From contig JAFZOY010000040.1 in assembly GCA_017552705.1 (NCBI GenBank), forward strand, positions 1 through 64,000: a stretch of DNA of 64,000 nt, read 5' to 3'. Both the position numbers and the translations under genes were made by a program. Position 1 is the first letter of the stretch; every line of letters starts with the position of its first letter. Under the pieces are notes generated by a model. That model ran no database searches and was not told the DNA's origin. It worked only from the letters and a program-made list of their open reading frames with translations. This stretch comes from Bacteroidales bacterium (GTDB taxonomy: Bacteria; Bacteroidota; Bacteroidia; Bacteroidales; UBA1715). Of this stretch, positions 43,873-50,124 are shown piece after piece.

Positions 43873-44300
43873 ATATCTAATTGTGTAGGGTTAAATGATT
43901 GTTTTTCAGCGTGATTATGACACGAATGATGTTCTGAACCGCAGGAATGTTCGTGGCCTTCGCTGTGGTGGTTGCATTTCACATCGGGATTATACACAAG
44001 AGTTCCATTAAGCAATGCTTCAACTGCATCATCAGCATTGCCAGTCACTCCACCGAAAATGCGAATACCAACTTGGGATAAAGCCGTCATTGCTCCGCCT
44101 CCGATACCGCCACAGATGAGCGTATCAACACCGTTTTCTTGTAGAAATCCTGCCAAAGTTCCATGTCCTTGACCATTGGTTCCAACAATTTCGCTATTTG
44201 CAACAGCGTTGTTTTCGATATAGTAGAATTTAAACGTTGCTGTATGTCCAAAGTGCTGGAACACAGAACCATTTTCGTATGTGACTGCAATTTTCATATA
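43869..44300 (-). CDS. NifX/NifB-type dinitrogenase iron-molybdenum cofactor-binding family protein
   Basis: This encodes 143 aa from the ATG at 44300, giving the family start MKIAVTYENGSVFQHFGH; a longer frame begins at 44336. Conserved LICGGIGGGAMTAL and VTGNADDAVEALLNG follow. A His/Cys-rich tail (about 115-135: CNHHSEGHEHSCG, HHSCHNH) looks metal-binding. Such stand-alone proteins occur in anaerobes without nitrogenase. Coupled to the C_GCAxxG gene, it suggests a metal or Fe-S handling pair (inference). Confidence 0.85.
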   Translation of the reverse strand, partial: YMKIAVTYENGSVFQHFGHTATFKFYYIENNAVANSEIVGTNGQGHGTLAGFLQENGVDTLICGGIGGGAMTALSQVGIRIFGGVTGNADDAVEALLNGTLVYNPDVKCNHHSEGHEHSCGSEHHSCHNHAEKQSFNPTQLDI

Positions 44301-44487
44301 ATTATTTTTCACAAAGATAGCACATTTCCGAAACAATCGTAGAATCCCCCTATCAAAGTCATAACTGACAGATAATCAGCTATAACATTTTGAATTTTAG
44401 AGTATAATTGTATTTATATGATTATCAATTGTTTGTCTTTGTTTGAGAATTTAATGCGGTTGCCGTGGCAGGAATGTCATGTATATA

Positions 44488-44517
44488 TTGAAAATATAGA
44501 ATAAAAGCATATCTTTG
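44488..44517 (+). promoter_or_regulatory. Promoter of the A+T-rich lipoprotein gene set
   Basis: TTG (44488-44490), 19 nt, TATCTTTG (44510-44517); near-ideal Bacteroidota spacing, 55 nt before the ATG at 44573. The stretch 44301-44487 shows no other feature. Confidence 0.65.
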
Positions 44518-44572
44518 CCACCATTGAACAAGATAAACGGATTGTAGAGTTAGAAAATAAAAAGTAAACTCT

Positions 44573-45112
44573 ATGAAAGCATTTCATTATTGTATATTGC
44601 CTCTTGCAGTGGCAGTATGTTTTGTAGCATGTGATTTTCAAATTGGAGTATCTAATTGGGTTTTTATATATAAAGCAAAAGCAGATTATTCTAATCAGAT
44701 ATTCATATCGGTTGACTCTTCTCGGACCTATATATATCGAAGACCGAAAAAAAATGAAATAAAAGAATATTTGAAACACATAAAATTGCAAGATAATTAT
44801 TTTAAAGTAGAAGGAGCATGGAATCATAACGGTTGGTATGGTCTTAGCCATTGTGATTGTGTACCTATCTCGTTAACAATTGAACAAGTGGATTCTTTAG
44901 ATTCTTTAACAGATGAGGAATTATTAAAATTGGTTATAGACTTTGAACCATACTTGGAATTTTACTCAACCAATAGGAATAAGATTATTAGTAAATTAAA
45001 AGATGACAATAAGTGTAACAAAATAATTAAAGAAGGTAAACTTTCAGAATACATGGATAAACATAATGCGTGTAATACATGTCAAAAAAGTGATACACTT
45101 GAATATAAATGA
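44573..45112 (+). CDS. Lipoprotein of unknown function (A+T-rich island, 1 of 3)
   Basis: This encodes 179 aa with a lipoprotein signal (LAVAVCFVACD). The mature part is Lys/Asp/Ile-rich, with a HCDC motif in the middle and a C-terminal CNTCQ. No family was recognised. The gene and the next two are visibly richer in A+T than the flanking core genes, suggesting recent acquisition or relaxed composition. They share orientation and close spacing. Confidence 0.7.
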   Translation: MKAFHYCILPLAVAVCFVACDFQIGVSNWVFIYKAKADYSNQIFISVDSSRTYIYRRPKKNEIKEYLKHIKLQDNYFKVEGAWNHNGWYGLSHCDCVPISLTIEQVDSLDSLTDEELLKLVIDFEPYLEFYSTNRNKIISKLKDDNKCNKIIKEGKLSEYMDKHNACNTCQKSDTLEYK

Positions 45113-45127
45113 AATAAATGGATAACT

Positions 45128-45352
45128 ATGCACGATTTTAAAAAGATATTATTTATTATAGTTGTTATTTTATACAATTCTTTTCCTTGTGTTTCACAAA
45201 ATGTACAAGGTAATGAAGCCCAGCAGGTAGGTCAATTAGAATCTCAAATTGTTACCAGATATCTTGATTTATCCTTTATAGATAAAGGCGTATACCAAAT
45301 AGTTGTTACAATAGGAGATGTTCAATATCAGACTAAAATTATAAAACAATGA
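45128..45352 (+). CDS. 74-aa exported protein resembling a bare T9SS sorting tail
   Basis: After a signal peptide (ILFIIVVILYNSFPCVSQ) only about 50 residues remain. The last 30 (LDLSFIDKGVYQIVVT..., ending KIIKQ) closely resemble the end of T9SS type A sorting domains (LDLS.L.KGIY.V.I......KIIKQ). The first strands of that domain and any cargo are absent. It is either an eroded T9SS cargo gene or a real small tail-only protein. Its stop overlaps the next ATG (ATGA), so it is still in a translated operon. Confidence 0.65.
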   Translation: MHDFKKILFIIVVILYNSFPCVSQNVQGNEAQQVGQLESQIVTRYLDLSFIDKGVYQIVVTIGDVQYQTKIIKQ

Positions 45353-45834
45353 AAATCCTAATTTATAATTTATTGTTATGTTTAATAATGACCTCCTGTG
45401 GACGCATTGAGTATGGTCCGTTCCCGGACGTCCCTTTCTTTTCATATGAAAAAGATAGAGAATATCTCTTCATTAGTAAATATGATATGTTATCATTCTC
45501 AGTAACTGATTTTTCAAAAAGTGAAGCTTATTCTTTCAAAAAGAATTGCGATTGTGATGGCGGAATGTCAGCATTTGTCAAATTACTAAGTAAAACCAAT
45601 GAATATATATCTATAAATGGTATGTGTCAGACTGATAACCAAAAAGATTATTTCTTTCATTATAACATTATAGAAAACAATGATTTGAATTGTTTCGAGT
45701 TTTATGCAAAAAACATACGAATAGATACCCTTATTTCAAACGAAAGTAATCCCACCTACACATGGATGAAATTTTCCACAGAAAAGGGCTTTTACGGCTT
45801 TGGGAATGATACGGTGCAATATATGCTGAAATAG
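45349..45834 (+). CDS. Lipoprotein of unknown function (A+T-rich island, 3 of 3)
   Basis: This encodes 161 aa with a lipoprotein signal (YNLLLCLIMTSCG). The mature part is aromatic-rich with a CDCDGG motif and the end FYGFGNDTVQYMLK. No family was recognised. Its start overlaps the stop of the 74-aa gene, so the two are translationally coupled. The ffh promoter begins just after its stop. Confidence 0.7.
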   Translation: MKILIYNLLLCLIMTSCGRIEYGPFPDVPFFSYEKDREYLFISKYDMLSFSVTDFSKSEAYSFKKNCDCDGGMSAFVKLLSKTNEYISINGMCQTDNQKDYFFHYNIIENNDLNCFEFYAKNIRIDTLISNESNPTYTWMKFSTEKGFYGFGNDTVQYMLK

Positions 45835-45841
45835 CCGTGAT

Positions 45842-45873
45842 TTTGTATTGATTATCTTTTTATGTTATCTTTG
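45842..45873 (+). promoter_or_regulatory. ffh promoter
   Basis: TTTG (45842-45845), 20 nt, TATCTTTG (45866-45873), 23 nt before the ffh ATG. Confidence 0.65.
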
Positions 45874-45896
45874 CATCAGTTTGAAATCGATACAGC

Positions 45897-47228
45897 ATGT
45901 TTGAGAATTTATCGGAACGATTGGAGAAATCGTTCAAATTACTGAAAGGACAAGGAAAAATCACCGAAATCAACGTTGCCGAAACGTTGAAGGACGTTCG
46001 CCGTGCGTTGCTCGACGCCGACGTGAACTATAAGATTGCAAAACAATTTACCGAAGACGTTAAGCAGAAAGCCCTCGGTCAGAGTGTGCTTACGGCAGTG
46101 AAGCCGGGCGAAATGATGACGAAAATCGTCCACGATGAACTTACTGCCTTGATGGGCGGCCAGAAAACCGACATCAACCTGAAAGGCAACCCTACCGTAA
46201 TTTTGATGGCTGGTTTGCAAGGTTCTGGTAAGACGACCATGTCGGGGAAACTGGCGAATATGCTTAAATCGAAACAAGGCCGTCACCCGTTGTTGGTTGC
46301 CTGCGACGTGTATCGTCCAGCCGCAATCAATCAGTTGCAGGTGCTTGGCGAGCAAATCGGCGTGCCTGTTTTTGCCGACCTGAGCGACAGCAATCCTGTG
46401 AACATTGCCGAAAAGGCTATCCGTCAGGCAAAACTGAACGGTCAAGATGTGGTGATTGTCGATACTGCCGGTCGTTTGGCTGTTGACGAGGCTATGATGA
46501 CCGAAATCACAAATATTAAGAATGCCATCAATCCGCAGGAAATCCTGTTCGTAGTTGACTCAATGACTGGTCAGGATGCGGTGAACACTGCTAAGGAATT
46601 CAACGACAGACTGAATTTCGACGGCGTGGTGCTTACGAAACTTGACGGTGACACTCGTGGTGGTGCGGCGCTTTCCATCCGTTCTGTGGTTGACAAGCCG
46701 ATAAAATTCGTCGGTACGGGCGAAAAACTTGAGGCAATCGACGTGTTCTATCCCGAACGTATGGCAGACCGTATTTTGGGCATGGGCGACATTGTTTCGT
46801 TGGTGGAACGTGCCCAGGAACAATACGACGAGGAAGAAGCCCGCAAGTTGCAGAAGAAGATTTCGAAAAACCAGTTCAATTTTGAAGATTTTCTTGCCCA
46901 GATTCAGCAGATTAAGAAGATGGGTAATTTGAAAGACTTGGCTTCGATGATTCCTGGCATGGGCAAGGCATTGAAAAACATTGACATTGACGATGATGCG
47001 TTCAAAGGCGTTGAGGCGATTATCCGCTCAATGACTCCCGAAGAACGTGCGAATCCAATCATACTGAACGGTTCCCGTCGAAAACGAATCGCATTGGGTA
47101 GCGGCACCTCGGTGCAAGACGTGAACAAACTCATCAAGCAATTCGACGAGACGAAAAAAATGATGAAGATGATTACAGGCAGCAAAGGCAGCAGACTGAT
47201 GCAGAGCATGATGCCGAATATGAGGTAG
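45897..47228 (+). CDS. ffh: Signal recognition particle protein Ffh
   Basis: This is 443 aa, full length. The NG domain has G1 GLQGSGKTT, DTAGRLAVDE and TKLDGDTRGGAALS; the Met-rich M domain (about 330-443) has PGMGKALK and a RKRIALGSG-type RNA-binding helix. It binds signal sequences and 4.5S RNA and delivers ribosomes to FtsY. It is a single gene with its own promoter and terminator. Confidence 0.98.
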   Translation: MFENLSERLEKSFKLLKGQGKITEINVAETLKDVRRALLDADVNYKIAKQFTEDVKQKALGQSVLTAVKPGEMMTKIVHDELTALMGGQKTDINLKGNPTVILMAGLQGSGKTTMSGKLANMLKSKQGRHPLLVACDVYRPAAINQLQVLGEQIGVPVFADLSDSNPVNIAEKAIRQAKLNGQDVVIVDTAGRLAVDEAMMTEITNIKNAINPQEILFVVDSMTGQDAVNTAKEFNDRLNFDGVVLTKLDGDTRGGAALSIRSVVDKPIKFVGTGEKLEAIDVFYPERMADRILGMGDIVSLVERAQEQYDEEEARKLQKKISKNQFNFEDFLAQIQQIKKMGNLKDLASMIPGMGKALKNIDIDDDAFKGVEAIIRSMTPEERANPIILNGSRRKRIALGSGTSVQDVNKLIKQFDETKKMMKMITGSKGSRLMQSMMPNMR

Positions 47229-47304: not shown

Positions 47305-50124
47305 TTACTCTGTTAGAGCATCGTCTACAGACTGTGACACAAGTATTGCTTTTGAAACGGAATCTGTAGTAACCCTAATATACGATTCTCGTGCCTGGTC
47401 CTTTGTGTTTTGCGAAACAGATACAATAATTTTGTCATTGCCCTTGCCCCCAATTGGAGTTACCGTAATCCAATCTGAATCGTTTTCAATATACCATACA
47501 TTTTGGGAGATTATACTCAACTCTTTGGAATCCGCATTTCGGGTGAAAAGCAATTCAGTTTTTGATACATCTAAATTTTTTTCGTCATCTTTTTTCAGAT
47601 CGCACACCAAACGTACGGAATAGCCATAGGGACGGATAGCCCCACTAACAAAAGCTTGTCCACTCTGAAAAAACAGATAACCTGCCCCATAACCAGCACT
47701 CTCAGATGAAGACCAATAATGTCCACTGGCTCCCACAAAGGATATTTTCAAACTATCGCGTTTTCCAGCAGCAGGAAGGAAAACAGCTCCGTTAGTTTCC
47801 ATTTTTGCCCAGTCTGTTATCGAATATATATTGGTTTCAAAATCTTTCATTCCGCTACTAAATGTAACACCTTCGGGAGTTGACCAATTATCTGGCAACA
47901 ATACTATACCGTTTATGTCATTAACTGTTGCAAAACCTTTCAAAACATTCGCATCAGTTCTTTTATCCAATATATAATTCCATTCACCATAAGTTAGGGT
48001 TCTCCACACACCAACAGTGTTTTCGCCATTGATTATTTTATTATATACGCCCCAGTCTGCATTTGCATAAGAACCAGTCAAATCATTGTTTTGCGAACCA
48101 CCAAACACATAATCTTCTTTGTCTTTGCTTGTTGAATATGGTTGATAGGCGTTTGCTCCGCTATTCCAACCGCTTGTCCCCCAACCAAATAAATCTATCC
48201 AATCGCTATATGTAGGAGATATGTTTTTGTTATTGTTACCAATGATATCGTATTGATTTTCCGCAAAACGCCAAGTATTTGAATTTGCTTGATATTGCAA
48301 GTTTCCCATAGAAAAAGCTATCTTGCTATTCTTACTAATAGAGAATACACCTTTTATTGATCCAGTAAAATATGAGTATAAATAGTTGTCGTCAGTATTG
48401 TTCCATTCGATAGTTTCTTCTGCTTCATTTTTTTCCGTTGTAGGGATATCGGTTGTGGATTGAGTCACAACTATTACTTTTTCCTCGGAATTTATCACTA
48501 TGCGAATATATGATTCACGAACTTGACCAGTGGGGTTTTGCAAAACCGAAACTGTTATCTCGCCATTTCCCTTGCCTCCAATTGGAGTTACCGTAATCCA
48601 ATCTGAATTGCTTTCGACATACCATACACTTTTTGTAGTTATGTTCAACGTTTGCGAATCTGCATTTTGGGAAAAACATATCTCAGCTTTTGATAAATTT
48701 ATTTTTTGTTCTTTCACATCACGCACTAAGCGCACTGATTGTCCGAAACGGCGATTGCTAGCCACCATATATGATTTATCATTAGTGAGCCGTAGGGAGT
48801 ACGAATGTCCAGGACAGGGAAGATTATACGCCTCCGAAGACCAATAAAACCCGATAGAACCAACATCTTTAACCTCCATACCATCCCGGTAGCCAGCAGC
48901 AGGAAGAAAAACGGCCCCATTCATTTCCATTTTCACCCACTCATTTATCGTATATATGTTATTTCCGAAATCGTTCAGTCCACTATTGAATGTTACACCA
49001 TGGGGAGTCGACCAATTATCTGGCAACAATACAATACCTTCCACACCATTAACTATTGCAGAACCACACAACGCACTCGCCCTAGTTCTTTTCGACAATA
49101 CATAGTCCCACTCCGTATATGTCAATGTTCTCCACTTGCCAGCTCTGTTTCCACCATTACTAATTTTATTATACACTCCCCAATCGGCATCTTCATAATT
49201 GCCCATTAGATGATAATTTAAATAGTCACCACTGTTTGTATTTGTCGACCAAGGCAGGTATGCAGGGGATCCACTCTTCCAACCACTCGTTCCCCATCCA
49301 AACAAATCAATCCACCCACTGTATGAAGAAGAAACGTTTGAATTTTCCTCACCCATAATATCATATTGATTATTAGCAAAACGCCATGATTTTGTACTTG
49401 CTTGATACTGCAAATTTCCTTGCGAAAAACACACTTGTTTTTTTCCTGAAACAGAAAATGCAAATTTTATGGTCCCTTCTTCATATTCTTTTTCAAATGT
49501 AAATATACATTCTTCATCTTCAATAATTAGAGCTCTTTTTATGTCGCTTTGTTTTTTGTAATATCCCGTAAATTCAAATTCTTCGCCTTCATTGAATGTG
49601 ATAATATCTTCAGCAGATTTCAAGAATACCATTGATTCTGTGGTCGTAATTTCAGAAATATTTGTTTGCTCATCATCTTTCAACAATAATTTTACAGATT
49701 CATATTGATTTCTTGCTGTCGCAACTAATACGTATACACCTGCTTTTGCTCCAATTTGGAAAGCATATTGTCCTGCATTTACGTTGTTTGCATAACGAGC
49801 GACAACCTTTCCTTCTGTAGAATACAACTTAAGATTTAATTCTGATGATTTTGCTACATTTACCACAACTTTGTTGTTTGCTGTTTGTTGTATAAAAGCA
49901 GAGTTATTTACAGTTGCAACAGATGTTTCTTGTTTTGCATTTTGTTGCAATGTAATCATATTGTCGGGAATATACAACATTTTAGATTCTCCTGTAATGG
50001 TATTTTTTACTTGTACGCTATCCATTTTAACGTTGGCAGAAAACGTACATGTGTAGTTAGTTTGTGCGAGCAATCCTGTCATTACAAACAAAATTGCACT
50101 TAAAAAGAATGTAAATCTTCTCAT
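47305..50124 (-). CDS. Surface protein with duplicated FISUMP-like module plus BACON domain
   Basis: This encodes 939 aa. A signal peptide (FFLSAILFVMTGLLAQ) leads to an N-terminal region containing a sorting-tail-like segment (about 95-150, LKLYSTEGKVVARY...GVYVLVATARNQ) in an unusual non-terminal place. Then come module 1 (about 219-470), BACON 1 (about 470-550), module 2 (about 590-845) and BACON 2 (about 855-939). Both modules have the GNLQYQ, WIDLFGWGTSGW, ILLPDNWS-type, GAVFLPAAG and YWSS...SVRLV blocks of the paralogous-domain (FISUMP-like) group. Both BACON copies contain SDWITVTPIGGKG. It is probably surface exposed and glycan- or protein-binding; no C-terminal sorting tail is present. 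Confidence 0.82.
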   Translation of the reverse strand: MRRFTFFLSAILFVMTGLLAQTNYTCTFSANVKMDSVQVKNTITGESKMLYIPDNMITLQQNAKQETSVATVNNSAFIQQTANNKVVVNVAKSSELNLKLYSTEGKVVARYANNVNAGQYAFQIGAKAGVYVLVATARNQYESVKLLLKDDEQTNISEITTTESMVFLKSAEDIITFNEGEEFEFTGYYKKQSDIKRALIIEDEECIFTFEKEYEEGTIKFAFSVSGKKQVCFSQGNLQYQASTKSWRFANNQYDIMGEENSNVSSSYSGWIDLFGWGTSGWKSGSPAYLPWSTNTNSGDYLNYHLMGNYEDADWGVYNKISNGGNRAGKWRTLTYTEWDYVLSKRTRASALCGSAIVNGVEGIVLLPDNWSTPHGVTFNSGLNDFGNNIYTINEWVKMEMNGAVFLPAAGYRDGMEVKDVGSIGFYWSSEAYNLPCPGHSYSLRLTNDKSYMVASNRRFGQSVRLVRDVKEQKINLSKAEICFSQNADSQTLNITTKSVWYVESNSDWITVTPIGGKGNGEITVSVLQNPTGQVRESYIRIVINSEEKVIVVTQSTTDIPTTEKNEAEETIEWNNTDDNYLYSYFTGSIKGVFSISKNSKIAFSMGNLQYQANSNTWRFAENQYDIIGNNNKNISPTYSDWIDLFGWGTSGWNSGANAYQPYSTSKDKEDYVFGGSQNNDLTGSYANADWGVYNKIINGENTVGVWRTLTYGEWNYILDKRTDANVLKGFATVNDINGIVLLPDNWSTPEGVTFSSGMKDFETNIYSITDWAKMETNGAVFLPAAGKRDSLKISFVGASGHYWSSSESAGYGAGYLFFQSGQAFVSGAIRPYGYSVRLVCDLKKDDEKNLDVSKTELLFTRNADSKELSIISQNVWYIENDSDWITVTPIGGKGNDKIIVSVSQNTKDQARESYIRVTTDSVSKAILVSQSVDDALTE

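What the first reader, a model, noticed from the sequence alone, without database searches (positions are those of the whole stretch)
45128..45352. Tail-only T9SS protein
The 74-aa product consists of a signal peptide plus what looks like the last strands of a type A sorting domain (ends KIIKQ). If intact it would be a cargo-free sorting-tail peptide, which could compete for or modulate the T9SS; otherwise it shows how such cargo genes decay.
Basis: inference. Interest (0 to 1): 0.5.

Follow-up and report, generated by a model that had tools for sequence, protein, structure and literature searches.

The report
Remnant of a secreted protease gene
This short gene is what is left of a secreted protease gene that lost its middle, keeping only its export signals, while the two neighbouring lipoprotein genes, one of which probably controls such proteases, stayed intact.

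Summary
The 74-aa ORF is real, and its end resembles the last strands of a type A T9SS sorting domain: TIGR04183 E=3.9e-4, 20.3 bits against a cut-off of 23. It is most likely not a stand-alone sorting-tail peptide. A sister genome (G006) carries an intact counterpart: a lipoprotein gene 64% identical to the window's upstream neighbour, then 22 bp, then a 669-aa C10 (streptopain-type) peptidase with Spi prodomain and a weak sorting tail. The ORF's first 35 residues align without a gap to that peptidase's N-terminus (13 identical, SQNVQ shared). About 595 codons are missing, in frame. The gene before the upstream lipoprotein is likewise reduced to its promoter region and last 14 codons. Both lipoprotein genes remain open. 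The upstream one's family has a C10 peptidase nearby on the same strand in 16 of 40 loci and is constrained (dN/dS 0.20). Best reading: a deletion-decayed T9SS protease gene whose probable inhibitor lipoprotein was kept. The tail may come from the same gene or a second T9SS gene. Whether the product is made or exported is unknown.

The parts
44395..45865 (.). Islet absent from the syntenic NifX-like/ffh interval of two sister genomes
   Evidence: blastn: left-flank homology ends at window 44394 (G007, L087/L045) or 44338 (G006, L044) and resumes at 45866 in both, with 0 and 33 bp between the two matches there. GC 27.6-31.1% in the three genes against 41.0% for the window.
44488..44517 (+). Promoter-like TTG-N19-TATCTTTG, shared with the region before the 508-aa gene in G006
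   Evidence: Pattern search: 5 in 64 kb, 1.7 expected, 6 of 100 shuffles with 5 or more; 32-nt match (87.5%) to G006 L160 263-294; consensus from a passage of PMC7366714. No transcript data.
44523..44567 (+). Last 14 codons and stop of an otherwise deleted upstream gene (IEQDKRIVELENKK*)
   Evidence: Aligned with the end of the 508-aa gene of G006 (IEQEKRIKELEMKK*), same 5-nt gap to the lipoprotein start.
44573..45112 (+). 179-aa lipoprotein ('lipo179'), probable C10-peptidase inhibitor or partner
   Evidence: Lipobox VACD by eye; 64% identical to G006; family beside a C10 peptidase in 16 of 40 loci; dN/dS 0.20 over 177 codons; no NCBIfam or PDB match, one Pfam line far under its cut-off.
45128..45352 (+). 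74-aa ORF: C10 peptidase remnant, signal peptide + start of prodomain (about residues 1-35) joined to the end of a type A sorting domain (about residues 45-74)
45349..45834 (+). 161-aa lipoprotein ('lipo161'), start overlaps the ORF stop (ATGA)
   Evidence: Lipobox TSCG by eye; matches at E<=0.01 in 10 other order genomes of 295, several weak or partial; a relative in G005 has the same ATGA overlap with a decayed sorting tail.

Best explanation
The ORF is the in-frame deletion remnant of a T9SS-type C10 (streptopain/PrtT-type) cysteine peptidase gene. The ancestral cassette was promoter - 508-aa-type gene - lipo179 - C10 peptidase with sorting tail - lipoprotein. In this genome deletions removed the bodies of the 508-aa-type gene and of the peptidase, leaving promoter, lipo179, a 74-codon fusion of peptidase 5' end and sorting-domain 3' end, and lipo161. 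Shown: the ORF, the sorting-tail similarity, the intact counterpart in G006, the N-terminal homology, the remnant of the first gene, and the lipo179-C10 linkage. Inferred: that the tail comes from the same peptidase gene rather than a second T9SS gene before lipo161; that lipo179 is a peptidase inhibitor kept as protection; and that the short ORF persists mainly because its ends border the neighbouring genes (its 3' end overlaps the lipo161 start). If translated, the product would probably be exported to the periplasm by Sec; its fate at the T9SS is unknown.
For: G006 L160: lipo179 orthologue (64% identity; DNA 73.7% over 539 columns), 22 bp, 669-aa C10 peptidase (PF01640 7.5e-26, PF13734 7.7e-12; sorting tail weak: PF18962 8.2e-4 and TIGR04183 1.1e-4, both under cut-off). 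Window gap 15 bp. Ungapped N-terminal alignment, 13 of 35 identical, SQNVQ identical; with the signal peptide held fixed, 3 of 5000 shuffles of the rest score as well. Independently, the ORF as query in 393 order genomes hit, among five weak matches outside its own genome, residues 3-58 at the start of a 486-aa frame of G078 (E=0.0026) that is a C10 peptidase with sorting tail (C10 profile 7.4e-26, tail profile 3e-14). Three further loci have lipo179 directly before a C10 peptidase: L125 (tail TIGR04183 2.3e-9), L131, L134 (tails weak, 0.0017 and 0.032 in my profile). The upstream gene is reduced to its last 14 codons behind its promoter region. Other decayed cases: L089 tail frame without C10 before lipo179, L131 stop at the end of the signal peptide, own C107 with one TAA inside, G005 40-aa tail frame before a lipo161 relative (33 residues of it hit TIGR04183 at E=0.001).
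Against: The G006 peptidase's own tail does not align to the ORF's tail better than shuffles (score 22; 2677 of 5000; 2281 of 5000), so the 3' part could stem from another T9SS gene. The 161-aa and 214-aa downstream lipoproteins of the two cassettes are not significantly similar (41 against a shuffle 95% point of 50). The prodomain-start profile gives about 1% by shuffles over its first 10-11 columns, chosen post hoc, and no signal over 14 or 19. 23 of 40 lipo179 loci have neither C10 peptidase nor tail in the stretch held. Frame, start and stop are intact, and codon-position GC (45/21/16%) looks coding. The cassette lies at another place in G006. This is a draft assembly of 160 contigs and the junction was not checked with reads.
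Confidence: 0.85

Rival explanations
1. Functional cargo-free sorting-tail peptide: exported by Sec, it occupies T9SS recognition sites (or is secreted) and modulates secretion.
For: Intact ORF in a tight gene set behind a promoter-like site. Retains the last 22 residues, the stretch to which the secretion signal was narrowed in P. gingivalis (passages of PMC5445135; section 2.2 of PMC11285876), and a lysine-bearing C-terminus. T9SS translocon gene present.
Against: No relative of the same make-up. Lacks the first strands and the b3-b4 loop that PMC11285876 (abstract, sections 2.1-2.2) reports as relevant. Single-sequence model of low confidence, pLDDT 54, three strands. Origin as a deletion product explains it.
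Confidence: 0.07
2. Deletion across two genes: N-terminus from the lipo179-linked C10 peptidase, tail from a different T9SS gene that stood before lipo161. This is a variant of the best explanation and lies inside its confidence.
For: The G006 peptidase tail is dissimilar while tails of other proteins score 52-53. In G005 a decayed tail overlaps the start of a lipo161 relative in the same ATGA manner.
Against: Sorting tails are short and diverge fast (inference), so the best-scoring tail does not identify the donor; a one-gene deletion is simpler.
Confidence: 0.3
3. Unrelated small secreted protein with chance similarity to both ends of T9SS peptidases.
For: Under the TIGR04183 cut-off; no Pfam tail line.
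Against: Both ends match independently and the position in an orthologous cassette is the expected one.
Confidence: 0.05

Closest known systems
C10 peptidases exported by the T9SS (P. gingivalis PrtT and periodontain, listed as T9SS effectors in PMC5445135; passage)
   Same: Signal peptide, Spi (I69) prodomain, C10 domain and sorting tail in the G006 counterpart
   Different: The window copy keeps only the two ends; no catalytic domain
Bacteroides fragilis Bfp peptidases with staphostatin-like Bfi proteins (PMC2873492, abstract and passages)
   Same: C10 peptidase gene beside a small exported or lipoprotein gene proposed as inhibitor; two of four peptidase genes co-transcribed with it
   Different: lipo179 is longer (179 against 116-138 aa); no link to staphostatins by Pfam or PDB sequence search; Bfp proteins are predicted lipoproteins in that paper, whereas the peptidases here carry sorting tails
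T9SS type A sorting domain TIGR04183
   Same: Last strands and lysine-rich end
   Different: First 26 of 72 profile positions missing; below cut-off

Membership tests
T9SS type A sorting domain (TIGR04183) | Score at or above curated cut-off | tested here: not met
   20.3 bits against 23, E=3.9e-4
T9SS type A sorting domain (TIGR04183) | Complete seven-stranded domain with N-terminal strands and b3-b4 loop | tested here: not met
   Profile 27-72 only; three strands in a low-confidence model
T9SS type A sorting domain (TIGR04183) | Conserved C-terminal end with GxY and lysine | tested here: met
   KGVYQIV...TKIIKQ at the very C-terminus; motifs as described in PMC5445135 and PMC11285876
T9SS type A sorting domain (TIGR04183) | Directs secretion | not testable with these tools
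   Needs a fusion experiment
C10 peptidase gene (PF01640) | Catalytic domain | tested here: not met
   No PF01640 line for the ORF at E<=10
C10 peptidase gene (PF01640) | Homology to the N-terminus of a C10 peptidase at the orthologous position | tested here: met
   G006 L160; also G078 by unguided search
C10 peptidase inhibitor (lipo179 as Bfi/staphostatin type) | Gene next to a C10 peptidase gene | tested here: met
   16 of 40 loci, 16 of 16 on the same strand; neither C10 nor tail in 23 of 40
C10 peptidase inhibitor (lipo179 as Bfi/staphostatin type) | Staphostatin-like sequence or fold | tested here: inconclusive
   No PDB sequence match of note (none; one at E=0.46, unrelated); model pLDDT 35, unusable
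C10 peptidase inhibitor (lipo179 as Bfi/staphostatin type) | Inhibits the peptidase | not testable with these tools
   Needs an assay

The most novel reading that the evidence does not exclude
The islet is an 'orphan immunity' locus: the cell has shed its own T9SS protease but keeps, under constraint and behind the old promoter, lipoproteins that neutralise such proteases when sister species (as G006) secrete them; the leftover 74-aa sorting-tail peptide is co-produced and still touches the T9SS.
Probability: 0.15. Interest if true: 0.6.

Novelty: new member of a known kind. Interest (0 to 1): 0.3.

Why it matters
It shows how a T9SS cargo gene is lost: the effector body goes, the ends that abut neighbouring genes stay, and the linked lipoprotein survives. 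It also points to an unnamed lipoprotein family that often travels with C10 peptidases in this order and is a good candidate for a peptidase inhibitor. As a regulator peptide the ORF itself is probably ordinary debris.

Tried and rejected
Chance similarity of the tail: disfavoured by shuffles and by position. A second copy in the same genome: the only match to the ORF there at E<=10 is itself. Comparable short sorting-tail frames in the genome: C154 (68 aa) shows no signal peptide by eye, C64 (69 aa) runs into the contig end. Weak matches of the ORF elsewhere, looked at one by one: G013, G002 and G014 are ends of longer sorting-tail proteins; G005 (78-aa frame) is a tail frame without signal peptide beside another tail-bearing frame; G078 is a C10 peptidase; G266, G201 and G359 hit neither my tail nor my C10 profile. 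RNA families in 44300-46000: none at the gathering scores. Carriage by viruses: no relatives of the ORF or of lipo179 in viral contigs by the pattern-based scan, which finds close relatives only. Fold of the ORF and of lipo179 from single sequences: too poor to use, so no fold search was made. Similarity of the window's two lipoproteins to each other: none of note. Printed precedent: (listings only) showed no title on decayed sorting-tail genes or lipoprotein inhibitors of T9SS C10 peptidases; this covers only the open library and those terms. PMC12618676 (passages) was seen and states that type A tails of about 100 aa are necessary and sufficient for secretion.

Full report
Observation. The ORF 45128-45352 (+) encodes 74 aa with a signal-peptide-like start (by eye) and the end KIIKQ. 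NCBIfam TIGR04183 matches residues 25-74 over profile positions 27-72 of 72 with E=3.9e-4 and 20.3 bits, under the cut-off of 23. Pfam's tail model gives no line. A home-made profile from 25 of the 30 fetched own-genome tails gives 9.6 bits; it ranks fourth of 772 window frames, and 5 of 2000 shuffles of the mature part reach that score. The genome has SprA (TIGR04189, 2313 bits) and 79 TIGR04183 matches including this ORF, so it is very likely a T9SS organism; I tested no other T9SS component.

Surroundings. The ORF lies between two lipoprotein genes, 15 bp after the 179-aa one (44573-45112) and overlapping the start of the 161-aa one (45349-45834) by ATGA. The set forms an AT-rich islet (27.6-31.1% GC per gene, window 41.0%) between a NifX-like gene (my label, not searched) and ffh. 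Two sister genomes (G006, G007) with the same flanks lack it there. Three more with an ffh match (G005, G008, G010) show no left-flank match in the 1.5 kb held, and G009 gave no ffh match at the threshold.

The upstream lipoprotein's family. It gave 49 matches in 44 of 393 order genomes at E<=0.01. I fetched wider stretches covering 45 of these 49 places in 43 loci (left out: the window itself and one place each in G014, G173 and G264); 40 of the 43 loci held a member by my profile. Of these 40, 16 have a C10 peptidase, in 16 of 16 on the same strand (13 upstream, 3 downstream), 1 has only a sorting tail, and 23 have neither. Some stretches end early at contig ends, so absences are upper bounds. 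Within the genus, five C10 loci also hold a member: L156, L157, L158, L160, L162. As a rough yardstick, the own genome has five C10 matches in 2.95 Mb.

The intact counterpart. In sister genome G006, contig C66 (L160), a 182-aa orthologue (64% identity) is followed after 22 bp by a 669-aa protein with Spi prodomain and C10 domain (PF13734 7.7e-12, PF01640 7.5e-26) and a sorting tail under both cut-offs, then by a 214-aa lipoprotein not significantly similar to the window's 161-aa one. Its first 35 residues align with those of the window ORF without a gap, 13 identical, with SQNVQ shared; with the signal peptide held fixed, 3 of 5000 shuffles of the rest score as well. By pairwise search at E<=0.001 the lipoprotein is in 2 of 14 family genomes, G000 and G006; the profile adds the distant members named above. 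The ORF is thus best read as the peptidase gene less about 595 codons, in frame.

An unguided check. Searching 393 order genomes with the ORF gave five weak matches outside its own genome (E 8.8e-4 to 0.0098), and 14 family genomes gave three (E 0.011 to 0.042). Looking at all eight: three (G014, G013, G002) are ends of long sorting-tail proteins; one (G078, query residues 3-58) is the start of a C10 peptidase with a sorting tail; one (G005) is a 78-aa tail frame without signal peptide; three (G266, G201, G359) hit neither profile. So the two halves of the ORF find the two ends of such proteins.

A second deletion. In G006 the lipoprotein is preceded by a 508-aa gene. In the window, the promoter-like TTG-N19-TATCTTTG (44488-44517), which matches the region before that gene, is followed closely by the last 14 codons of the gene (44523-44567), with the same 5-nt gap to the lipoprotein start. 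The -7/-33 consensus is from a passage of PMC7366714; the pattern itself is not rare (5 in the window, 1.7 expected).

Where the tail comes from. Residues 45-74 match a 177-aa sorting-tail protein of a family-level relative (score 53, 1 of 5000 shuffles) and an own-genome tail (52, 0 of 5000) but not the G006 peptidase's tail (22, 2677 of 5000). The first two were picked after seeing many tails; over 47 tails the best score is 52 against a shuffle maximum of 53 and 99% point of 45. So the tail may belong to the same gene in an older form or to a second T9SS gene before lipo161. In G005 a decayed tail frame overlaps the start of a lipo161 relative in the same way.

The prodomain start. A 14-member profile of C10 mature N-termini, cut to 11 columns post hoc, puts the ORF in the top 1.4% of shuffles (277 of 20000), and fifth of 55 mature N-termini collected by a crude signal-peptide pattern. 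The four above it are C10 peptidases: three are in the profile itself, the fourth is G078, which had been fetched by its similarity to this ORF. Over 14 or more columns there is no signal, as expected if homology stops near residue 35.

Decay is recurrent. A tail frame without C10 domain stands before the lipoprotein in L089; a stop lies at the end of the signal peptide in L131; the own C107 peptidase match contains a TAA. The lipoprotein itself shows dN/dS 0.20 between window and G006, though most of that divergence may predate the deletion.

Function. Published work says both that the secretion signal was narrowed to the last 22 residues in P. gingivalis (passages of PMC5445135; PMC11285876 section 2.2) and that an intact sandwich and a b3-b4 loop matter (PMC11285876, abstract and section 2.1). 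The ORF keeps the former and lacks the latter, so export through the T9SS cannot be predicted. I therefore regard the peptide as probable debris, and the retained lipoproteins, one likely a peptidase inhibitor by analogy with Bfi proteins (PMC2873492, abstract and passages), as the part under selection.

Noticed in passing
window 47305-50124 (-): 939-aa BACON-domain protein carries its sorting-domain-like stretch at residues 83-148, near the N-terminus, not at the C-terminus.
   Followed up: no
L086, L088, L091-L093, L104, L105, L113, L119 and others: Unnamed lipoprotein family linked to sorting-tail C10 peptidases in the order; the four members scanned (window, L091, L093, L125) reach no Pfam or NCBIfam cut-off. 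Three tandem copies in L088.
   Followed up: partly
L178 1705-2238 (+): 177-aa sorting-tail protein directly after a gene whose end resembles that of the 508-aa gene of G006; a possible relative of the cassette in another genus of the family.
   Followed up: partly
L156 79-198 (+): 40-aa decayed sorting-tail frame without signal peptide overlapping (ATGA) the start of a lipo161 relative in G005.
   Followed up: yes
L033 / L040 (own contig C154:10599-10763, minus strand): 68-aa sorting-tail frame without visible signal peptide, another likely remnant.
   Followed up: partly
L003 (G005 C23:49525-49683, minus strand): 78-aa sorting-tail frame without signal peptide beside another tail-bearing frame in a sister genome.
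   Followed up: partly
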